The notes beneath the pieces were generated by a model that was given only the letters and a program-made list of their open reading frames with translations, was not told the DNA's origin and did no database searches. A stretch of DNA of 64,000 nt from Sulfurimonas sp. C5 (GTDB taxonomy: Bacteria; Campylobacterota; Campylobacteria; Campylobacterales; Sulfurimonadaceae): the NCBI RefSeq assembly GCF_029872055.1, contig NZ_JARXNQ010000001.1, positions 62,001 to 126,000 of the forward strand. Direction: 5' to 3'. Positions within the stretch are counted from its first letter, which is position 1; each line of letters opens with the position of its first letter. The translations under genes were made by a program, and so were the position numbers. Positions 26,185-37,410 of the stretch are shown piece after piece.

Positions 26185-26275
26185 GGACAGATGGGTGAGC
26201 TGGCTGAAACCACATCCCTGCTAAGGATGCGTATGGGTAACTGTACCGAGGGTTCGAATCCCTCTCTGTCCACCA
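26185..26275 (+). tRNA. tRNA-Ser (GCT)
   Basis: A 91-base class II tRNA with encoded CCA. The acceptor stem is GGACAGA/TCTGTCC, the D arm GGT/ACC, and the anticodon stem CATCC/GGATG with loop CTGCTAA (anticodon GCT at 26220-26222). A long variable arm marks tRNA-Ser, and the T arm is GAGGG-TTCGAAT-CCCTC. It reads AGC/AGU codons. The discriminator base is A rather than the G common in bacterial tRNA-Ser. Its 3' end is the attachment core of the adjoining element and remains intact after integration. Confidence 0.95.
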
Positions 26276-26278
26276 CTA
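26259..26278 (+). repeat. attL core repeat in the tRNA-Ser 3' end
   Basis: The 20-bp sequence TCCCTCTCTGTCCACCACTA covers the 3' T stem, acceptor stem and CCA of tRNA-Ser. It is repeated perfectly at 37391-37410. The integrase gene starts 188 bases inside the left copy. Confidence 0.92.
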
Positions 26279-26388: not shown

Positions 26389-26447
26389 GGGGGCTATTAT
26401 AGGGGCTTAGAAAAATCAAGCCCTTATTGCCAAGATGAAAAGCCCCT
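26389..26447 (+). promoter_or_regulatory. Candidate integrase arm-type sites, left end
   Basis: GGGGCT occurs at 26390-26395 and 26402-26407 (12-base period), and inverted as AGCCCCT at 26441-26447, with a weaker AAGCCCTT at 26418-26425. The same pair with the same 12-base period lies at the right end of the element (37325-37342). They sit just before the int ATG, so integrase binding here could also control its own promoter. Confidence 0.5.
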
Positions 26448-26466: not shown

Positions 26467-27690
26467 ATGGCTAGACCTACAACACAACTCACAGCAACAC
26501 AAATCAAAGAAGCTAAATCAAAAGACAAGAACTATAAGCTTTTTGATGGTGGGGGCTTATTCCTCGAAGTAACCCCTACGGGTAATAAATCATGGAAATT
26601 AAAATATCGTTTCGAAAATAAAGAGAAAAAATATACTATTGGTAAGTATCCAAGTATATCTTTGGCAACTGCAAGACAAAAAAGAGAAGAGTTAAAAACT
26701 CTTATTGCAGAAGGTATTGATCCTAATGAGAAAAAGAAACAAGATAAACAACTTCAAGAACTACAGAAAAATAAAGAGACTAACACATTTAAAAAATTAG
26801 CATTACAAAGACTTGAGAAAGTACAAGAAGATATTAGTGAAAGTCATTACAAGAGAATGATGAGAGGTTTTGTTAATGATGTCTTTCCGTTTATAGGGGC
26901 TAAGCCTATAGATGATGTAACAGCTGATGATATTATCGATATAATGCAAAGAATGGAGAAGAGAGGAGTTAAAGAAAGTGCAAGAAAACTCTATCAAGCT
27001 ATCAGTAAAACATACAAGTGGGCTGTAAGTAATCGTTATGCTAAAAGAAATCCTGCTAATGATATTGATTTAAATGAACTTTTAGGAAAACGACAAGTAA
27101 CACATCATGCGACTTTTACAGATGATGTAAATATTTCAAGATTACTATTTGCAATAGAAAAATATCAAGGTGAAATAACTACAAAACATGCTTTAAAACT
27201 TATGGCTTATACTAGTTTAAGAACAGCCAATATTGTTGAAGCAGAATGGAGTGAGATTGACTTTAGAAATAAACAATGGAATATTCCTGCTAGAAAAATG
27301 AAAACAAGAAGCGATCATATTGTCCCTCTTACAAATACTACACTAAAAATATTTGAAGAGATGAGAGAATATACAGGTAAGAATAAATATATTTTTACTG
27401 GTACAAAAGGGAAGAATACACATATTGGTAGTGAAACACCAAGAAATGCTATAAGAAATATGGGCTTTACATCAAAAGAATTTACACCTCATGGATTTAG
27501 AGCTATGTTCAGTAGTATCGCACATGAAAAAAGTCCTTTTAAATATGAAGTCATTGAAGTGCATTTAGCTCATAGTATAGGTAATAGTGTTTCTAAAGCA
27601 TATAATCGTGCAAAGTATCTTGATGAAAGAAGAGAGCTTATGCAATGGTGGAGTGATTATTTAAATGGGGTGATATCTAATGAAACCTAA
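26467..27690 (+). CDS. int: P4-type tyrosine integrase
   Basis: A 407-residue site-specific recombinase. The N-terminal DUF4102 (arm-binding) domain has FDGGGLFLEVTPTGNKSWKL and YTIGKYPSISLATAR; a SAM-like core-binding region (about 105-195) and the catalytic domain follow. Catalytic residues are visible as Arg252 (TSLRTANIVEAEW), His342-x-x-Arg345 (HGFR), a later His in HLAH and the nucleophile Tyr379 (KAYNRAKYL). It presumably inserts and excises the element at the tRNA-Ser repeat. Its end overlaps the next gene by 11 bases. Confidence 0.95.
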   Translation: MARPTTQLTATQIKEAKSKDKNYKLFDGGGLFLEVTPTGNKSWKLKYRFENKEKKYTIGKYPSISLATARQKREELKTLIAEGIDPNEKKKQDKQLQELQKNKETNTFKKLALQRLEKVQEDISESHYKRMMRGFVNDVFPFIGAKPIDDVTADDIIDIMQRMEKRGVKESARKLYQAISKTYKWAVSNRYAKRNPANDIDLNELLGKRQVTHHATFTDDVNISRLLFAIEKYQGEITTKHALKLMAYTSLRTANIVEAEWSEIDFRNKQWNIPARKMKTRSDHIVPLTNTTLKIFEEMREYTGKNKYIFTGTKGKNTHIGSETPRNAIRNMGFTSKEFTPHGFRAMFSSIAHEKSPFKYEVIEVHLAHSIGNSVSKAYNRAKYLDERRELMQWWSDYLNGVISNET

Positions 27691-28264
27691 AATAGATCAA
27701 AATGAATTTGATAAGTTTATGTGTATTTTTGAAAAAGAAGCTGACAAAGAACTGATGGTAGACGAATATGTTTCCTATCAACAAAGAGAAGCAATACGAA
27801 CATATGGTTACTTTTTAGTTCTTGTTGGAGAGGAAAACTATCAGAAAGTAGCTAGTAAATTGGCAACAGAATTAAAATTTTATAATTTCATATGTGAAGA
27901 TCGCATAGCAGAGATGCCTAATGATACTAAAGTTGAAAGAGAAAAATATTTAAAAATTGCAACAAAATTTAGAAATACTTTAGTTAAACCAGGTAAGCCA
28001 CGAGAAGATGGTAGAGGTAATCAAAAAAAAATAAATGATTATATAGAGTTAGTCAGATTAATTGACCTATATATTGAAGACCTTCATGAGCCTGAACCTA
28101 ATCATTGGCAAATATTACCATTCGACAATTTTATTAAAAAATATAAAAAATCAAAAACTAAAATGAAAGATTGTATAAATGAAATCATAAAACAATACAA
28201 CATTACTGGTTTTTCAAAGGAAGCAAAACAACTTATAGATTATCTAGACGACTTACCAAAATAA
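27680..28264 (+). CDS. Unknown 194-aa helical protein of the island
   Basis: No family recognised. The protein is charged and largely helical, with no signal or membrane segment and a Lys-rich C-terminal third. It starts inside the integrase gene (11-base overlap), so its expression is tied to int. By position it might help excision or control, but nothing in the sequence shows this. Confidence 0.6.
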   Translation: MKPKIDQNEFDKFMCIFEKEADKELMVDEYVSYQQREAIRTYGYFLVLVGEENYQKVASKLATELKFYNFICEDRIAEMPNDTKVEREKYLKIATKFRNTLVKPGKPREDGRGNQKKINDYIELVRLIDLYIEDLHEPEPNHWQILPFDNFIKKYKKSKTKMKDCINEIIKQYNITGFSKEAKQLIDYLDDLPK

Positions 28265-28401: not shown

Positions 28402-28578
28402 ATGAGTAAAAAATATATAAGAGCCAAAGAAGTTGCTCAATATTTGGGTATAGGGTTAAGTACTGTTTGGTTATATGCTAAACAAGGAAAATTACATCCT
28501 AAAAAAATTAGTGACAGAGTTACAGTTTTTGAAGTATCAGAATTAGATGCTTTATTTAATAGTGAAGTGGAGGTATAA
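28402..28578 (+). CDS. AlpA-like HTH regulator/excisionase
   Basis: A 58-residue protein with a single winged HTH of the MerR/AlpA type: KYIRAKEVAQYLGIGLSTVW (residues 4-23), then YAKQGKLHPKKISDRVTVF and a short acidic tail. In P4-like elements AlpA activates int or acts as an excision factor, and in Gram-negative PICIs it is the island activator. Its stop is 4 bases before the primase-helicase ATG, so the two are one operon. The palindrome just upstream may be its own operator. Confidence 0.85.
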   Translation: MSKKYIRAKEVAQYLGIGLSTVWLYAKQGKLHPKKISDRVTVFEVSELDALFNSEVEV

Positions 28579-28582
28579 GATT

Positions 28583-31093
28583 ATGAAAAAGCAAGAGACC
28601 TCTAAAAAGAAGCCTATTGATATTATAACAAATACTTTATCAATGAGCTTTGCAAGAGTAAGAAAAGATAAAGTAACAACTTTTGGCTATAAAATGAAAC
28701 ATTTTAACAATGCTGAAGAATTCATAGTTCAACTAAACTCTGAAGCCACTATACCTGTATCTGTAGAAGGTGGACATAGAAAAACTTCAAACATTACTGA
28801 GGTGTTTGGTTGGATTAGATTTGATACTGACCTTGAAGGTGAAGCTGATGAGTTAGAGAAATTGTTTATAGAATACAATTTGTGGTTTATTAAAAAACCT
28901 TCAACGAATCATAAAAGTAATCCTTATAAGTTTCACTTTTTAATTCAAGTGACTAATGTGGCTCAACATCCAACAGCTTATAAACTTCAAGTGGCTGAAT
29001 TTATGGAACGTTTTAATGTTCCTAAAATACAGGATATGAGAGCTACAACCTCTTTAGCTCAAAACTTGAATCCCTGTAAAGAAGATGTGTCTTATTGTAG
29101 AAAACATACAGTAATAAATGAAGGTGAAGTGGTTGAACTTAAAACAATTGATGAAGAATTTGAACCTATAAAAGAGGGTAGATATGCTAATTGTCAAATT
29201 AAAGGTGATTTAGAATTACCAGAGTTTATCGGTGAAAAAGCACTTAAAATTCCACCTGTAAATAAAAAAACGGGTGAAGTACAAACTCCAATACTTTCAA
29301 GAGATGGATTTATATTATCTGAAGATGGATGGATTAAGTTTTCAGAAATTGAAGAGTTTTTACATACCCAACCTAAAGGTACAAGATATTCTCAATTAGC
29401 TTGTCCAATATGTAATAAAGAACATTCTGATGGTACAGGTTTTACCACTGGGTATGCTTTTGCGTATATAAGTAATAATGAGAAAAAACAGTTAATTGTA
29501 CAGTGTGGAGGTTCTGGATGTAGTGGACATTCTTTGTATATTTTAGATGATGGAAGAAAAGAAGCAAATAAGACTCTTACACAAACTGAGGTTATGAAGA
29601 TGATTGAAGATGCTGAGTTTTTTGAATATACAGCAATAGAACCACTTTTAGATGCTATAGCATGTGTAGATGTAAAAGCTGTAAGAGGATCATTGTGTAA
29701 TCAATTAAAAGATCGTGCTGAAAGAACATACAAATATTCAGTAGTTGATCTAAAAAAAGATGTTGAAAAACGTGTAAAAGATCAAAAAGATGCAACAGGT
29801 TCATTTTCACTTACTTCTTTATTTGAACATCCTCTTTTTTGGGATTCTAATAAAGCTGTAATGGCTGAAGTTGGTGAAGGTGTATTTAGAATTTATAAAC
29901 CTACAGACTTTAATCAGACTGTGGCTAGTAGATCAAAAGGTGCAATTACTGTCAAAGATGTAACTAACTACAGACATACAATACCTGAAAAGATTTTAGT
30001 TTATAAACCTGACCATGATAATTCAAAAAAATTATTTGAAGATGGTTTAGAGGCAATTAATATTTATCAAACTCCCCCATTTAAAAGAGATAAGTCTATT
30101 AAAACAATGCCTCCTTATACTAAACAGTTTTTAAACACTTTATTTGAAAGTGATAAAAAGGCAAAAAAATATTTTATCCATTGGTTAGCCTATATTGTTC
30201 AAAAAAGAAAAAAAACTGGTATAGCATGGGTATTTCATGGTTTACAAGGATCTGGAAAAGGAATTACAGCGACTATAATAAGTCATTTAGTAGGTAAAAG
30301 GAACTGTAGATTAAATCTTGGAAATACGGATTTAGAAAGTCAGTTTAATGGTTATATGTTTCAGTCTATGTTTTTAGAATTTAATGAAGTAGCTATAGAT
30401 ATAAAAAGTAGAACGAAAATATCTAATACTTTAAAAACAATTATTACTGATTCAGCAGTAGAGATTAATCAAAAGAATGTGAAACAATTTTCAGCGATTA
30501 ATTATACAAATGTAATCATAAGTAGTAATAGTTCAAAACCCATCCAAATTGAACCTGATGATCGTAGATTTAATGTTGTAACAACTAAGAATAAATTGAT
30601 TGAACAATCTTGGTGGAATGAAAAGGCACACGATCAAATAATGTTTGAAGTGGAAGAATTCTATAACTACTTGATGAATTTAGTTATAGATGTAAAAAAG
30701 GCTACAAGGGTAATGAAGAATTCTATTGCCAAGGAAAATATGGTTGGATTGACTAATAATAAAATGAATCAGTTAATTGATGCTTTGAGAATAATGAGTT
30801 TTGAAAAATTTACAAATCTCTTTGGATTTGAACCGAAAGATAAACAATATCAAGAAGCCAAATGGTCATTTAAACATAAAAGATTTAGAACCACTTTTTT
30901 AATTGATTGTCTTGCTCAAAGTGGTATAGAGTCATTTGCGTTTACGAAAGATGAACATAAATTCGATAGAGCTTATCAAACAAGGACAAGTAAATTACTT
31001 CATTGTGAATTAAAGTCTATATTGGAGTATGAAAAAAGTTCTTCTATACGAGGTTTTGATAAAAAACAATCAAGTCACCTTATTTTTAAGTGA
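28583..31093 (+). CDS. Primase-helicase replication protein
   Basis: An 836-residue protein from the ATG at 28583, chosen for GGAGG at 28569-28573; an in-frame ATG at 28547 lies inside the AlpA-like gene. The N-terminal region (about 20-170) looks like an archaeo-eukaryotic-type/RepB-type primase domain, e.g. WIRFDTD and PYKFHFLIQV. A zinc-binding segment begins with CPIC at 274-277 and ends CGGSGCSGHS. A superfamily 3/DUF5906-type helicase has Walker A GLQGSGKG at 553-560 and MFLEFNEVA as a likely Walker B. Comparable to P4 alpha and PICI Pri-Rep proteins. It should start replication at the iterons just downstream. Confidence 0.88.
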   Translation: MKKQETSKKKPIDIITNTLSMSFARVRKDKVTTFGYKMKHFNNAEEFIVQLNSEATIPVSVEGGHRKTSNITEVFGWIRFDTDLEGEADELEKLFIEYNLWFIKKPSTNHKSNPYKFHFLIQVTNVAQHPTAYKLQVAEFMERFNVPKIQDMRATTSLAQNLNPCKEDVSYCRKHTVINEGEVVELKTIDEEFEPIKEGRYANCQIKGDLELPEFIGEKALKIPPVNKKTGEVQTPILSRDGFILSEDGWIKFSEIEEFLHTQPKGTRYSQLACPICNKEHSDGTGFTTGYAFAYISNNEKKQLIVQCGGSGCSGHSLYILDDGRKEANKTLTQTEVMKMIEDAEFFEYTAIEPLLDAIACVDVKAVRGSLCNQLKDRAERTYKYSVVDLKKDVEKRVKDQKDATGSFSLTSLFEHPLFWDSNKAVMAEVGEGVFRIYKPTDFNQTVASRSKGAITVKDVTNYRHTIPEKILVYKPDHDNSKKLFEDGLEAINIYQTPPFKRDKSIKTMPPYTKQFLNTLFESDKKAKKYFIHWLAYIVQKRKKTGIAWVFHGLQGSGKGITATIISHLVGKRNCRLNLGNTDLESQFNGYMFQSMFLEFNEVAIDIKSRTKISNTLKTIITDSAVEINQKNVKQFSAINYTNVIISSNSSKPIQIEPDDRRFNVVTTKNKLIEQSWWNEKAHDQIMFEVEEFYNYLMNLVIDVKKATRVMKNSIAKENMVGLTNNKMNQLIDALRIMSFEKFTNLFGFEPKDKQYQEAKWSFKHKRFRTTFLIDCLAQSGIESFAFTKDEHKFDRAYQTRTSKLLHCELKSILEYEKSSSIRGFDKKQSSHLIFK

Positions 31094-31175
31094 TCTTAGA
31101 GAGTGGTGGGGAATGTATATTATATATATTTACCATCATGTAGAGTAGTATTTTTTAAGGTCTTGGAGAGATTAT

Positions 31176-31351
31176 GGTGAACATGGTGAATATATTCTAA
31201 GTATTATATTCTTATATAAAGAAAAAATAGTTATAAAAATTATTTCTATAAAATTCTATATTAAAAATGTTCACCATGTTCACCAATTAGTGTATTAAGC
31301 CCAAAAATAGGTTTGAAAACGCATAAACATTATATTCACCAAATGTTCAAC
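31176..31351. other. Putative replication origin with iterons
   Basis: Six 9-bp iterons. On the plus strand, GGTGAACAT (31176-31184) is joined to GGTGAATAT (31185-31193). In the opposite sense lie ATGTTCACC twice in tandem (31267-31284), ATATTCACC (31332-31340) and the one-mismatch ATGTTCAAC (31343-31351). The two tandem pairs create a perfect 16-bp inverted repeat (31175-31190 with 31270-31285) around 79 bases that contain only 8 G or C. GGTGAACA-type iterons are, from memory, what P4 alpha binds. The whole non-coding stretch 31094-31552 holds this, plus a tandem CGTAGGAAA repeat near 31391-31410 and nothing else clear. Confidence 0.75.
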
Positions 31352-31552: not shown

Positions 31553-32392
31553 CTATTTATAGTCTTCAACTACTTTATATGTAATATCTAGATTTGTCGC
31601 TTTTAACACTTCAATTCGTAAACCCTTGAACCCAATTAAAGTAGTTTCTTTATCATCAAGTTCATATTCAATATTTTGTGTAAAAGCAGGTCTTGCCATA
31701 TCATTTAAAAATTCTCTAAATGATATTTTAATTTTATTTCCTATTTTACCTTGATATAAAACTATGTATTTAAAACTTTCTTTTGAATATTCTGTTGATT
31801 GGATATCTGTATAGTCTATTGGTTTTACTAATTCAAAAAGTTCTTGGCCATTATACAAACTAATATGAGTAAATTGATTTGTATTATTAAGATCAATTAG
31901 ACATTTATCATAATATGAATAGTTATTATAATTGGCATTAGGAAATGAACAAACTGCTTTTAATTGTTTGTCAGACCATGACACTAGTTTACGACCTATT
32001 GAATCAATATTTATTGATGAAGTAGGGATAGAATCACCCCCAGTCATTACATCCACTGCACCATTAATCATATTCCTGAGAGAGTTTAAACTACTTTCAT
32101 CTTGATTATTATTTACAGTTTTTTGAGAGGCATAATATGTAATTTGCTTATTAACATTTTTTAAGACAACATCTCTTGTATCAAATATGTATAAATAATT
32201 TTTTTGATACATATTATCACCAATTTCAACTGTATTAACAATATTTAAGTCAGGTGTACGTAAGGTATGCATACCCGAAGTAATATTTGTATCATGATAA
32301 ATAGTAGCTAAACTTTTACTGGGCTGTGGTTGCGTACAGCCTGTAATAAAGCTGATAGTCAAAATTCCTAATATTAGGTTGATTTTTTTCAT
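31553..32392 (-). CDS. Predicted lipoprotein of the island, unknown function
   Basis: A 279-residue lipoprotein with a signal ending in lipobox ITGC (Cys19), then a soluble domain with mixed beta and Ser/Asn-rich loops. No family recognised. It is the only element gene on the minus strand and diverges from the cargo operon across a 208-base gap. A surface lipoprotein on a satellite could act in superinfection exclusion; that is only a suggestion. Confidence 0.65.
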   Translation of the reverse strand: MKKINLILGILTISFITGCTQPQPSKSLATIYHDTNITSGMHTLRTPDLNIVNTVEIGDNMYQKNYLYIFDTRDVVLKNVNKQITYYASQKTVNNNQDESSLNSLRNMINGAVDVMTGGDSIPTSSINIDSIGRKLVSWSDKQLKAVCSFPNANYNNYSYYDKCLIDLNNTNQFTHISLYNGQELFELVKPIDYTDIQSTEYSKESFKYIVLYQGKIGNKIKISFREFLNDMARPAFTQNIEYELDDKETTLIGFKGLRIEVLKATNLDITYKVVEDYK

Positions 32393-32600: not shown

Positions 32601-33896
32601 ATGTTAAAAAAAGTAAACTTTGGCTCAACCAGTTTTTATGATATTCATGAATTATTTGGATTAGACGAACATGAAGATTTAGAACAACGTAGTTCAAGGT
32701 TATTTCCACTTGGAAAATCTGAAAGTGAAACATCTACTACATCAATTTTTTTAGCGACAATGAGTGCTGTTAAAGAGTATAGAGAAGAGCTACTTTCAAC
32801 TATCGGCATTAAAAAAATCACTAATAAAAATGTGCAACTTCACACATATACTGAATTATCCAATGATGATGGTGATAGACCTGATGGTGTAATAGTTATT
32901 ACAAGCGGTAAAAATAATCCTATTGTTGAATGGATGTGTTTTGTTGAGTCAAAAGTTGGCAATCAAGTATTAGAACAGACACAAGTAGATAGATATGTGA
33001 AATTTGCAAGAGACATAGGTATAACTTCTATTATTACAATTTCAAACCAGTTAGAGACTACTCCTTTTGATAGTCCTCTTCAAGCACCAAGAGGTAAATT
33101 TGAGCTATTCCATTGGTCGTGGGCATACTTGAAAGTTATGGCAACAAGATTGATAAGAACAGATAGTATTGAGGATGAAGACCATATTTACATTTTAAAT
33201 GAATTTAGAAGATATTGTGATACTCATCCATATTTATCTCATTATGAAAACATGGGTAAAGAGTGGAAAGATGCTGTTAATAAAATTCAAGATTTATCCT
33301 CTGACCAAAAAGTAGATAATGCATTATTAAATAGTATTATTGATTCATATAAGCAGGAAGAAAAAGACATAAGTTTACAGTTGACTGATAAAACAAAACA
33401 TTATATTGAGTTGGTAAGTAAAAATGATAGAGTAGAAGAAATGATTAAATCCCTTAATACTAATAAAACTATTACTTCTGAATACACTATTAACCATGAT
33501 AAAAGTAAAACTTTTTATATAAGAGTTAATTTTCATCAACAGTCTGTAGAATGTTTTACAAATATACAAATTGATAAAGGGAAAGCTCACGCACAGACAA
33601 CAGCTTTAGTTAAAATGTTAGAAGATGAATCAGGCACAACTGACTTGATAGCTGTAACTGCTTATTACCCAAGAAATAAATGTATAGAACCAGCTTATCT
33701 AAGTAAACTGATAGAGGAAAAAGATAAAGCTCTTCAATACTCAATAATTAATAAAGAGCTAGGGGATACGATTAAAACATTCGAAATAAAAACGAAAGAT
33801 TTATTAGGTAGAAATTTTCAAGGTTCTAAAAACTTTATTACTAATCTTGAAGAATATGCACTTCGTTTTGTTACACAAGTAATGAATAATTTATAA
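32601..33896 (+). CDS. PD-(D/E)XK-like protein, first cargo gene
   Basis: A 431-residue cytoplasmic protein. A nuclease-fold core is suggested by GDRPDGVIVI (Asp95) followed by CFVESKVGNQVLEQTQ, giving Glu116-x-Lys118 and a Gln near 126-128, the order of a PD-(D/E)XK site. Before it lies a conserved-looking RSSRLFPLGKSESETSTTSIFLA block; after it come helical and coiled regions and a second beta-rich part (about 300-350). It resembles uncharacterised proteins sometimes called stress-response proteins; function unknown. Ribosome site AAGGAAG; first of five same-strand genes with gaps of 19-60 bases. Confidence 0.65.
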   Translation: MLKKVNFGSTSFYDIHELFGLDEHEDLEQRSSRLFPLGKSESETSTTSIFLATMSAVKEYREELLSTIGIKKITNKNVQLHTYTELSNDDGDRPDGVIVITSGKNNPIVEWMCFVESKVGNQVLEQTQVDRYVKFARDIGITSIITISNQLETTPFDSPLQAPRGKFELFHWSWAYLKVMATRLIRTDSIEDEDHIYILNEFRRYCDTHPYLSHYENMGKEWKDAVNKIQDLSSDQKVDNALLNSIIDSYKQEEKDISLQLTDKTKHYIELVSKNDRVEEMIKSLNTNKTITSEYTINHDKSKTFYIRVNFHQQSVECFTNIQIDKGKAHAQTTALVKMLEDESGTTDLIAVTAYYPRNKCIEPAYLSKLIEEKDKALQYSIINKELGDTIKTFEIKTKDLLGRNFQGSKNFITNLEEYALRFVTQVMNNL

Positions 33897-33956
33897 TGAA
33901 TCGTAAGCTTGCTTATTCGCTTTCAAGTTATTGAATTTATGAGGTAGGATAAAACA

Positions 33957-34742
33957 TTGGCATTAAAAGGTAGTGAAAAATTTGTAGCTAAAACTTTAGA
34001 AGAACATTTCAAAAAATCATCTCATAGCGTATGTGTTGAAGAAGGCAATGATCCTCCAGACATTTATTTAACAATAGATGATAAAAAAATTGCCGTAGAA
34101 ATCACCGATATTGATCAAAATGTTTTAAAAAATGCTAAATCTATAAATTATGGATATTTAAATTTAATTGAAAATTTAGAGAAAGAACTTGGAGACTCCA
34201 TTGATGATGATAAGAAACTGTTTATAGTTTTTTATAATAATCATGTCAAGGTAAGTAAAATAAATAAAAAGTTTAGAAAATATCTTCAAGATTTTATAGA
34301 AAAAAATGAATTATCAATTAATGATTTTATTGAAGATAGTATAGACAATGTCAATTTTAAGATATCTGTTTTGGATATGCCAAAAAAAGGGAAAAATAAA
34401 ATTGCTGGTACTTCAACAACGCATGCTGGTAGATCCCAAAAATCCAGAGATATTAGTGAAGTTAATAATGCAATATACGAGAATGATTTATCAATGCAAA
34501 CTCTTGATATTCTGGAAAATCGAATAGATGACAAGAATAGAAAATGTGAAAATATTGTGGAGTTAAAATGGTTGGCATTATATGATAACTATTATGATAA
34601 ATTTACAAATTTTGAGAATGATGAGCATCTTGTGCATTACCAAAATATATTTGAAAGTATTACTGATTTTAAATGTTTTGAAAAAATATTGGTGATTTTT
34701 AAAAATGGGGATATTCTAGAGTTCGATAATCAAAAAAGTTGA
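33957..34742 (+). CDS. Restriction-endonuclease-fold-like protein, second cargo gene
   Basis: A 261-residue protein starting at TTG 33957 behind GAGGTAGG. PPDIYL (Asp35) and KKIAVEITDID (Glu48-x-Thr50) fit a PD-(D/E)XK-type core in which the usual Lys is Thr, a variant found in several hypothetical families. The rest is charged and mostly helical (KKGKNKIAGTSTTHAGRSQK near 142-161 is strongly basic). No membrane segment. Assignment rests on the short motif only. It lies 60 bases after the preceding nuclease-like gene. Confidence 0.55.
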   Translation: MALKGSEKFVAKTLEEHFKKSSHSVCVEEGNDPPDIYLTIDDKKIAVEITDIDQNVLKNAKSINYGYLNLIENLEKELGDSIDDDKKLFIVFYNNHVKVSKINKKFRKYLQDFIEKNELSINDFIEDSIDNVNFKISVLDMPKKGKNKIAGTSTTHAGRSQKSRDISEVNNAIYENDLSMQTLDILENRIDDKNRKCENIVELKWLALYDNYYDKFTNFENDEHLVHYQNIFESITDFKCFEKILVIFKNGDILEFDNQKS

Positions 34743-34786
34743 TATTAACAGCTTGATGTCAATAAAAATTTATTTAAGGAATAAAA

Positions 34787-36010
34787 TTGAGTTTATATCT
34801 ACCTGATGAGTTATATGTAATATTAGAAAAAATTGGATGGGATAAGTCTGAAAATGTAGCTGATTTTTGGTTTAAGCATAGAAATGATATCTCGAAAGAA
34901 CTCTTTAAATCATTTTCTGAAACAAGCTTTATAGTTTTTGAAAACCAAATTAGATGGAAAAGTGATATTGGTCAAGAATGCGAAAAACAAGTAAAAAGCT
35001 TTTTAGAAAATGAAGTGGCAAGAATAAAAAAACTACACGAAGAGGCTTATAAAGTTAGTGCTCAATTAACTTCAAAGCAAAAGACAGTTAATTTTAGTAA
35101 TTTTACTTTTACTTTTAATGGAATATCATATACACTTAATGACTTTCAACACTATTATAAAAATTGTCCAAAGATCTTTCCTAATGCAAACTTGCAAGGA
35201 ATTAATTTAGAAGGGATAAAATTACATCATTGCATAATCGAAAATGTTAGTTTTGCATATGCAAATCTTAATAACTCTGCACTAGGGGCTACATTTAGTA
35301 ATTGTAGTTTTGTAGGTACTATTTTGACGAACTCTCGTTTAGGCTTCAGATTAATGAATAACACTTACATTGAAGGTTCTAATCTAGAAGGTGCAAGGAT
35401 AAATGCTGTAAATTTTGGTGATGATGCTCTTTCTAGTAAATTTCAATATAAAAAAGTATCATATTTATATTTATTAAAGTGTATGTTTTTAGTTTTAATA
35501 TTAAGACAAAAACATTTTATTGAAAAAGAGAATCAAAAACATACAGTCTTTATTTCTAATTTTACGGATAGGCTTACAACAACTTATAATAAACCAATTA
35601 AGTCTTATATAAATTGGTATGAATATGTATTTTCTCAATTAAGAAACTTTCACTCATTATCGTTTGCAGAAAAAACATTATTTACTATGTCACTAATATT
35701 TACAAAGTCGTGGACTTCTTATTTAGTATTAGCGTCTTGGGCATTAATAGCTAATTTATTATTTGCATATTTTTATTATGTTATCTATGTTATTGATGCA
35801 ACAAGTTTCAATATACCAGAAAAGTCCATCATAGATTATTTTACTATGTTTTATTACAGTATTGTGACTTTTACGACATTAGGTTATGGCGAAATTACAC
35901 CTGTGACTTATTTTACTAGGTTGCTTGTAATAGGTGAAGTTCTTTTAGGTTATATAACTTTAGGTTCATTCGTATTCTTAATTGGACATAAAGCTAGTGA
36001 TAGATTTTAA
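34787..36010 (+). CDS. Pentapeptide-repeat protein fused to a two-TM potassium channel
   Basis: A 407-residue membrane protein with a TTG start behind AAGGA. Residues 1-130 are a charged helical region. About 131-212 are pentapeptide repeats (NANLQGINLEGIKL..., SFAYANLNNSALGATF), forming a beta-helix. A link with a further helical part follows. The C-terminus is an ion-channel domain with TM1 about 310-335, pore helix, selectivity filter TLGYG (Thr364-Gly368) and TM2 about 379-400. The filter is that of K+ channels. A soluble sensor coupled to an ion pore inside a mobile element suggests a membrane-depolarising effector; this is inference. Confidence 0.85.
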   Translation: MSLYLPDELYVILEKIGWDKSENVADFWFKHRNDISKELFKSFSETSFIVFENQIRWKSDIGQECEKQVKSFLENEVARIKKLHEEAYKVSAQLTSKQKTVNFSNFTFTFNGISYTLNDFQHYYKNCPKIFPNANLQGINLEGIKLHHCIIENVSFAYANLNNSALGATFSNCSFVGTILTNSRLGFRLMNNTYIEGSNLEGARINAVNFGDDALSSKFQYKKVSYLYLLKCMFLVLILRQKHFIEKENQKHTVFISNFTDRLTTTYNKPIKSYINWYEYVFSQLRNFHSLSFAEKTLFTMSLIFTKSWTSYLVLASWALIANLLFAYFYYVIYVIDATSFNIPEKSIIDYFTMFYYSIVTFTTLGYGEITPVTYFTRLLVIGEVLLGYITLGSFVFLIGHKASDRF

Positions 36011-36060
36011 GAATAAGTTTTTAGTATATAAATAGATATAATGAAAAAGAAACGAAAAGT

Positions 36061-36495
36061 ATGATGAAAACATTTTTAATATTACTAATTTTATTACTTA
36101 ACTTAAATGCTCAATCTTTAAAAGACATAGACTATGGAAATGCTATTGTAGATGAGGTGACAAGCATTTATGATGGAGATACATTCAGAGCAAATATAAA
36201 AGACTATCCTAAAGTAGTTGGTTATCGTATGTCTATTAGAATAAATGGCATAGATACACCAGAGATGAAAGGCAAGTGCAGTCAAGAAAAAGATTTAGCA
36301 CGAAAAGCAAAACAAGTTACAGTATCAATGCTAAGAAGTGCTAAGGTAATAGAACTCAGAAATATAAAACGAGGAAAGTATTTTCGATTATTGGCTGATG
36401 TATATGCTGATGATGTATTAATAGCAGATGAACTTATTAAAAAAGGCTATGCTATTAGATATAATGGTGGGACTAAGATAGACTGGTGTAAATAA
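36061..36495 (+). CDS. Secreted staphylococcal-nuclease-like nuclease
   Basis: A 144-residue protein: signal peptide about 1-18 (MMKTFLILLILLLNLNAQS) and an SNase/thermonuclease domain. Visible are SIYDGDTFRA, IRINGIDTPEMKG with catalytic-type Arg, Asp and Glu, and a later Arg in KRGKYFRLLADVYADD. The fold cuts DNA or RNA with Ca2+. Predicted to work in the periplasm or outside the cell. Genes of this type recur on mobile elements. It lies 50 bases after the channel gene and 19 bases before the last cargo gene. Confidence 0.85.
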   Translation: MMKTFLILLILLLNLNAQSLKDIDYGNAIVDEVTSIYDGDTFRANIKDYPKVVGYRMSIRINGIDTPEMKGKCSQEKDLARKAKQVTVSMLRSAKVIELRNIKRGKYFRLLADVYADDVLIADELIKKGYAIRYNGGTKIDWCK

Positions 36496-36514
36496 TATAC
36501 ATTAAAGGAAGAAG

Positions 36515-37303
36515 TTGATTGAAACAATATTAGGCTCAAGTGGATTAACACTTTTTATTTTATGGATTTCGAAAAACTGGATATTAACTAGATTAACTAA
36601 AGCCGTTCAACATGAATACGATACTAAACTAACACTATTAAAAAATAATCTTCAACAGAATGAAAAGGCATTAAATGTACTTCGCAATGGAGCTCTTGAA
36701 AACTCAGTATATACTCAAAAATTATTATATGAACATAAGCTAAAAGCGACCCATGACCTTTGGGATAATATAATATCACTCGCACCACTAAAGAGTCTTT
36801 CAACTCATGTATTTTCATTAAATTATAATGAAATGATGAAACTTTCAGAGCAAGAACCAGAAGTTCAAGATTTCTTTAAAAAAATAGATATGCTCAAAGA
36901 TAGAGACATAAAAGAAGTATTGGATATTACAAAGGCACAAAAATCTCGTCCCTTTGTATCGCATACAGTATGGGCATTATTTAGTGCTTACCATGCTATT
37001 TTACAACATGATTTTGTCCGATATGAACTTTTAAAAATAGGTACTCCAATTGATATGAAAGACTCAAGTGTATTTAAAGTTGTAAAAGTTGCATTACCAG
37101 AACATGAAAAGTACATCGAGCAGTATGGTGAAAGCGGTTTATATCACTTAATACAAATTCTTGAGGATAAAATACTAACTGAATTAAAACAATTTCTTCA
37201 AAATACTCAAGAGAATTTAGAGAACATAGAAAGAGCTAATGAGATTTTAAATACTGCTAATAAATTGTATGAAGAAAATAATAAGTTAAAAAATGAAGAT
37301 TGA
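36515..37303 (+). CDS. Membrane-anchored coiled-coil protein, last cargo gene
   Basis: A 262-residue protein with a TTG start behind AAAGGAAG. It has one N-terminal membrane segment (about residues 4-20), a helical coiled coil (about 25-60), a helical middle and a Glu/Lys-rich coiled C-terminus. No family recognised. It is the last gene before the right end and 19 bases after the secreted nuclease, so probably the same transcript. Confidence 0.6.
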   Translation: MIETILGSSGLTLFILWISKNWILTRLTKAVQHEYDTKLTLLKNNLQQNEKALNVLRNGALENSVYTQKLLYEHKLKATHDLWDNIISLAPLKSLSTHVFSLNYNEMMKLSEQEPEVQDFFKKIDMLKDRDIKEVLDITKAQKSRPFVSHTVWALFSAYHAILQHDFVRYELLKIGTPIDMKDSSVFKVVKVALPEHEKYIEQYGESGLYHLIQILEDKILTELKQFLQNTQENLENIERANEILNTANKLYEENNKLKNED

Positions 37304-37323: not shown

Positions 37324-37342
37324 AGGGGCTTTTTTAGGGGCT
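37324..37342 (+). promoter_or_regulatory. Candidate integrase arm-type sites, right end
   Basis: AGGGGCT at 37324-37330 and 37336-37342, 12 bases apart, matching the motif and period at the left end (26390-26407). They lie 49 bases inside the right core repeat. CTTATACAATT also occurs beside both cores (26285-26295 and 37381-37391). Nothing else is seen from 37343 to 37380. Confidence 0.5.
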
Positions 37343-37390: not shown

Positions 37391-37410
37391 TCCCTCTCTG
37401 TCCACCACTA
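37391..37410 (+). repeat. attR core repeat
   Basis: A perfect 20-bp copy of the tRNA-Ser 3' end (T-stem arm through CCA and CTA) without the rest of the tRNA, marking the distal end of the element. Confidence 0.92.

What the first reader, a model, noticed from the sequence alone, without database searches (positions are those of the whole stretch)
32601..37303. Five-gene cargo operon: candidate undescribed defence system
Five same-strand genes with gaps of 60, 44, 50 and 19 bases fill the distal end of the element, the place where P4-like satellites and PICIs carry anti-phage cargo. The set combines two PD-(D/E)XK-like proteins, a K+-channel-like protein with a pentapeptide sensor, a secreted SNase and a membrane coiled-coil protein. 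I recognise no described defence system with this composition. A plausible scheme is sensing and nucleic-acid attack inside, with membrane depolarisation as the abortive arm.
Basis: inference. Interest (0 to 1): 0.85.

Follow-up and report, generated by a model that had tools for sequence, protein, structure and literature searches.

The report
Mobile-element cargo of five independent genes
A small mobile DNA element in a Campylobacterota bacterium carries five neighbouring accessory genes whose relatives elsewhere travel separately, several of them on phages and mobile islands, so they are best read as a string of single-gene tools against rival DNA and phages and not as one new defence system.

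Summary
Five same-strand genes (gaps 60, 44, 50 and 19 nt) fill the distal end of an 11.15-kb element integrated in tRNA-Ser, with 20-bp att repeats at 26259-26278 and 37391-37410. A is a PD-(D/E)XK nuclease: D95, E116-x-K118, Q128 and Y132 are invariant in 13 sequences, and the model has pLDDT 87. B has only part of the motif, with Thr in place of Lys. C is a K+-channel protein (filter TLGYG) with pentapeptide repeats. D is a secreted SNase with intact catalytic residues. E is a membrane-anchored coiled-coil-like protein.

The reading as one five-gene system is not supported. No relative found for any of the five has another of the five beside it. A occurs alone, or fused to TerD in actinobacteria (68 of 80 loci). 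D recurs alone in 12 viral contigs and in a Mu-like prophage. E is a moron inside the structural genes of two phages and the only cargo of a gamma-mobile-trio island. B's one relative stands upstream of Lamassu.

Best reading: an array of separately acquired anti-competitor genes, perhaps co-transcribed. D probably degrades naked DNA, as Campylobacter prophage Dns does; E is probably a single-gene exclusion or defence factor. No function has been tested.

The parts
26259..26278 (+). attL: 3' end of tRNA-Ser(GCT), TCCCTCTCTGTCCACCACTA
   Evidence: 20-bp perfect direct repeat with 37391-37410; tRNA 26185-26275
26467..27690 (+). tyrosine integrase (Arm-DNA-bind_3, Phage_int_M, Phage_integrase)
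   Evidence: Pfam
27680..28264 (+). 194-aa protein of unknown family, overlaps the end of the integrase gene
   Evidence: no match in Pfam, PADLOC, NCBIfam or PHROGs
28547..31093 (+). phage/satellite-type primase-helicase (DUF5906; P4-family primase C-terminus)
   Evidence: Pfam PF19263 E=1.3e-17; TIGR01613 E=6e-12 but below its cut-off; PHROG DNA primases
31553..32392 (-). 279-aa predicted lipoprotein (N-terminal LTISFITGC), phrog_1353 family of unknown function, divergent from A
   Evidence: (E=1.2e-24)
32601..33896 (+). A: PD-(D/E)XK nuclease (D95, E116-x-K118, Q128, Y132) with a C-terminal domain
   Evidence: alignment A6, AF2 pLDDT 87, VRR_NUC in 7 of 13 sequences, fold matches to restriction enzymes
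33957..34742 (+). B: PD-(D/E)XK-like protein (PPD35 ... E48-I-T50; Thr in place of Lys)
   Evidence: alignment with the Polaromonas relative; model not usable
34787..36010 (+). C: pentapeptide-repeat domain plus two-TM K+-channel pore (filter TLGYG)
   Evidence: Pfam, PDB matches to KcsA and other K+ channels, TM segments at 311-338 and 378-400
36061..36495 (+). D: secreted staphylococcal-nuclease homologue with the catalytic residues conserved
   Evidence: Pfam SNase E=6e-11, alignment to S. aureus nuclease, 12 viral-contig relatives
36515..37303 (+). E: N-terminally membrane-anchored coiled-coil-like protein of a moron family
   Evidence: relatives in phages, a GMT island and plasmids
37391..37410 (+). 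attR

Best explanation
The region is the cargo module of a small tRNA-Ser integrative element. It is an array of separately acquired accessory genes (morons) that now share one strand and probably one transcript. Each gene would act alone, at a different point, against rival DNA or phage. D: exported nuclease that destroys naked DNA outside the cell or in the envelope, so that transformation and incoming DNA are blunted. E: membrane-anchored protein that excludes or disables infecting phage at the envelope. A: cytoplasmic PD-(D/E)XK DNase that cuts foreign or damaged DNA. B: nuclease-fold protein, perhaps inactive. C: K+ channel whose opening would depolarise the cell, trigger unknown. Shown: the element, the genes, the domains of A, C and D, and the independent travel of A, D and E. 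Inferred: every function, and transcription as one unit.
For: A: 232 relatives of the profile in genome contigs, best 80 kept; 68 of these 80 are fused to TerD (actinobacteria), the rest mostly stand alone, and none has B, C, D or E within the fetched flanks. The closest one (48%) stands alone about 0.3 kb after a tRNA-Ser beside ribosomal genes. D: relatives of 57-63% identity in two genomes of the order: in a Mu-like prophage beside a repressor, in an island near a NACHT protein with a Cap4-like nuclease end, and just downstream of a tRNA-Thr; 12 viral contigs, up to 72% identity, none with A, B, C or E in the fetched stretch. E: read against the structural genes of two phages, between neck and terminase genes or beside the head-tail adaptor; only cargo between gmtX and a resolvase in a Photobacterium gamma-mobile-trio island, an element described as rich in anti-phage cargo (PMC12715929). 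B: its one relative is about 490 nt upstream of LmuA-LmuB, Lamassu. The host has ComEC, and prophage nuclease dns blocks natural transformation in Campylobacter jejuni (PMC10893306). P4-like satellites carry 1-5-kb hotspots of anti-phage cargo (PMC9122126).
Against: Short gaps and uniform base composition would also fit a co-evolved operon. B and C have too few relatives for a co-occurrence test. Some stand-alone relatives of A sit among metabolic genes, which does not favour defence. No phenotype is known for any member. No helper phage and no packaging genes were found.
Confidence: 0.72

Rival explanations
1. One five-component defence system: A and B sense and cut nucleic acid, C depolarises the membrane as the abortive arm, D and E assist at the envelope.
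For: Same strand, gaps of 19-60 nt, location at the distal end of the element; nuclease plus membrane effector is a common logic of abortive systems (general knowledge).
Against: No locus outside this genome holds any two of the five. D carries an export signal, so it is unlikely to act with cytoplasmic A and B. A, D and E each exist alone in unrelated hosts.
Confidence: 0.06
2. A smaller real unit is hidden in the array, for example A+B as a two-nuclease system or C with one partner, with the other genes added beside it.
For: B and C have almost no independent relatives, so they may depend on a neighbour; A and B both carry PD-(D/E)XK signatures.
Against: A's closest relatives lack B; B's relative lacks A.
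Confidence: 0.16
3. The cargo is not about phage or rival DNA: A is a stress-linked DNA-processing enzyme (as the TerD fusions suggest), C a stress or osmotic channel, D a scavenger of extracellular DNA for nutrition.
For: TerD fusion of A in 68 of 80 loci; metabolic neighbours of stand-alone A; pentapeptide-channel proteins among ordinary genes in haloarchaea.
Against: D and E are phage or prophage passengers; E is GMT-island cargo; the carrier is a mobile element.
Confidence: 0.15

Closest known systems
Anti-phage cargo hotspots of P4-like satellites and P2-like phages (PMC9122126)
   Same: Small integrative element with integrase and P4-type primase; a few kb of accessory genes at one end
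   Different: No psu, sid, delta or other hijacking gene was recognised; several unrelated genes in a row instead of one known system; Campylobacterota host; one primase relative in the order lies in a prophage with terminase and head genes
Prophage-encoded extracellular DNases (Dns) of Campylobacter jejuni CJIE1/2/4 (PMC10893306)
   Same: D is inferred to work like them: exported nuclease on prophages and integrated elements of the same phylum, also on a Mu-like prophage
   Different: D is of the SNase family; whether Dns proteins are homologous to it was not tested here
Single-gene phage morons for superinfection exclusion (such as P22 SieA)
   Same: E is one membrane-anchored protein, read against the late genes of two phages
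   Different: No sequence relation tested or claimed; no exclusion phenotype is known for the E family
TerD-PD-(D/E)XK fusion proteins of Streptomyces
   Same: The nuclease part is homologous to A over 58-93% of its length
   Different: A has no TerD domain and lies on a mobile element
Lamassu (LmuA-LmuB)
   Same: Neighbour of B's relative in Polaromonas
   Different: B itself matches no Lamassu model

Membership tests
P4-like satellite / PICI | site-specific integrase at a tRNA with att repeats | tested here: met
P4-like satellite / PICI | P4-type primase-helicase | tested here: met
   PF19263 and PHROG primases; TIGR01613 below its cut-off
P4-like satellite / PICI | helper-hijacking or packaging genes (psu, sid, delta, terS) | tested here: not met
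   no such family among the element's proteins; a diverged one in the 194-aa protein cannot be excluded, so the element is called satellite-like only
P4-like satellite / PICI | mobilisation by a helper phage | not testable with these tools
   needs an induction or transduction experiment
PD-(D/E)XK nuclease superfamily (A) | D ... E-x-K on the core strands, plus Q-xxx-Y motif | tested here: met
   invariant in 13 sequences; strands 96-102 and 108-117, helix 126-139 in the model
PD-(D/E)XK nuclease superfamily (A) | similarity to known members | tested here: met
   VRR_NUC in 7 of 13 sequences (best E=0.0011); PDB fold matches MspJI, EcoT38I, AspBHI (E 0.018-0.045, prob 0.69-0.93); viral PD-(D/E)XK protein prob 1.00
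PD-(D/E)XK nuclease superfamily (B) | D ... E-x-K motif | tested here: inconclusive
   D35 and E48 kept, Lys is Thr in both sequences; model pLDDT 35
K+ channel (C) | pore domain with TxGYG-type filter between two TM helices | tested here: met
   PF07885 E=3.9e-10, TLGYG in the sequence, TM segments
SNase (D) | catalytic residues of S. aureus nuclease (Asp21, Arg35, Asp40, Thr41, Glu43, Arg87) | tested here: met
   matching residues in the alignment to 4qb4, invariant in four relatives
known anti-phage system | match to a PADLOC model | tested here: not met
   no match for A, B or E; C and D only weak or domain-level matches
one co-inherited five-gene system | components recur together in other genomes | tested here: not met
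   no second locus with two of the five; weak test for B and C

The most novel reading that the evidence does not exclude
A composite system in which at least the A-B-C part is functionally linked (two nuclease-fold proteins controlling a pentapeptide-repeat K+ channel as a depolarising abortive effector), with D and E as added single-gene barriers. B and C have too few relatives to exclude it.
Probability: 0.08. Interest if true: 0.8.

Novelty: new member of a known kind. Interest (0 to 1): 0.4.

Why it matters
It shows a satellite-like element in the little-studied Campylobacterota collecting single-gene passengers into one array. It also points to two concrete uncharacterised families worth testing: E, a membrane-anchored moron found in phages, a GMT island and plasmids of several proteobacterial classes; and D, an exported SNase recurrent on prophages that could be an anti-transformation barrier. 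Testing the genes singly would quickly settle the claim of a new five-gene defence system.

Tried and rejected
A two-nuclease system of the GAPS4 kind for A+B: recalled from memory; the GMT paper is not held, and A's relatives lack B, so it was not filed. The first genome-contig scan with A alone found nothing; the profile A1 then found 232 relatives. Phage collection: no match for A, B, C or E by tblastn. Viral contigs: no match for A, B or C. PDB sequence searches with the A, B and E profiles gave chance-level hits only. Structure of B from the single sequence failed; the alignment with the plasmid relative was not accepted for folding. Profile searches for B and E in 298 Campylobacterota genomes found only this genome. 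Promoter scan: no excess over shuffles. Rfam: only the tRNA.

Full report
What is there. The ORF listing gives five + strand genes at the coordinates named, with gaps of 60, 44, 50 and 19 nt. They lie at the distal end of an integrative element bounded by a perfect 20-bp repeat of the tRNA-Ser(GCT) 3' end (26259-26278 and 37391-37410). The element is 28.6% GC against 36.0% and 33.5% in the flanks. Gene order: integrase, a 194-aa orphan, a DUF5906/P4-type primase-helicase, a divergent lipoprotein-like gene, then A-E. No psu, sid, delta or terS relative was recognised, so 'satellite-like' is as far as the evidence goes. The host is placed in Campylobacterota because G130, which the tool puts in the same order, has a contig of the same length and match as a record titled Epsilonproteobacteria.

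A. Thirteen aligned sequences keep D95, E116-x-K118, Q128 and Y132. The AlphaFold2 model is good (pLDDT 87, pTM 0.84) and puts these residues on the expected core strands and helix. Seven of the 13 match Pfam VRR_NUC weakly. The best solved-structure matches are restriction enzymes (MspJI, EcoT38I, AspBHI), with weak E-values but fair probabilities; the best viral match is a PD-(D/E)XK protein. The family is widespread: 232 relatives in the species-level collection. Of the best 80, 68 are fused to an N-terminal TerD domain in actinobacteria. The stand-alone ones have neighbours such as an SDR enzyme, an MFS transporter, a flavocytochrome-like oxidoreductase or a polyphosphate-kinase-like protein, by my reading of their sequences. 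The closest (48%) is alone, just after a tRNA-Ser, although its contig ends 0.9 kb downstream. None has B-E beside it.

B. Only one relative was found, on a Polaromonas plasmid (22-26% identity), about 490 nt upstream of a Lamassu LmuA-LmuB pair. Both keep PPD...E-x-T, with Thr where the catalytic Lys would be. Whether B cuts DNA is open; the single-sequence model failed.

C. Pentapeptide repeats (residues about 131-205) and a two-TM pore with a canonical TLGYG filter. In 200 genomes of the order nearly all matches cover only the pore part. The same architecture, distantly, exists in haloarchaea.

D. A signal-peptide-like N-terminus and an SNase domain with the catalytic residues kept. Relatives at 57-63% lie in a Mu-like prophage next to a repressor, in an island with a NACHT protein bearing a Cap4-like nuclease end, and directly after a tRNA-Thr. 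Twelve viral contigs carry D, up to 72% identical, often near integrase or repressor-type genes by inspection, and none carries A, B, C or E in the stretch fetched. In Campylobacter jejuni, dns on a Mu-like prophage goes with non-transformability, and strains with broken dns are transformable (PMC10893306). The window's host has ComEC. An anti-transformation or DNA-clearing role for D is therefore plausible by analogy; homology between D and Dns was not tested.

E. A hydrophobic N-terminus followed by a helical, coiled-coil-like body. In two phage contigs it is read against the structural genes: between the neck gene and the large terminase in one, and beside the head-tail adaptor, near the major head gene, in the other. 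In Photobacterium it stands alone between gmtX and a resolvase in a gamma-mobile-trio island; such islands are described as rich in defensive cargo (PMC12715929). In Thauera it lies next to an integrase on a plasmid. This is the distribution of a self-sufficient moron.

Conclusion. The genes are real and the place is right for anti-competitor cargo, but the five are not a conserved set. The most likely reading is an array of single-gene passengers, perhaps co-transcribed. Hidden pairs that involve B or C remain possible. All functional steps are inference.

Noticed in passing
window 26391-26447 and 37324-37342: AGGGGCT copies cluster near both ends of the element (26401, 26441 on the minus strand, 37324, 37336; 8 in the window against 1.9 expected): candidate arm-type integrase sites.
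   Followed up: partly
window 31553-32392 (-): Predicted lipoprotein of phrog_1353 (unknown function) divergent from the cargo; it could be a further cargo gene.
   Followed up: no
window 31175-31285: 22-nt inverted repeat (91% complementary, 67 nt apart) between the primase and the lipoprotein gene; no Rfam match.
   Followed up: no
L057 (G064): Relative of the element's primase (36-37%) in a prophage with terminase and head genes, by inspection of the ORFs.
   Followed up: partly
L035:4616-10402: 1928-aa NACHT/AAA protein with a Cap4-like nuclease N-terminus (below cut-off), 1.5 kb from a D relative: candidate NLR-like defence protein.
   Followed up: no
L016:5218-7263 and 68 of the 80 loci L061-L140: TerD fused to a PD-(D/E)XK nuclease in actinobacteria, a conserved architecture for which the family libraries name only the TerD part.
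   Followed up: partly
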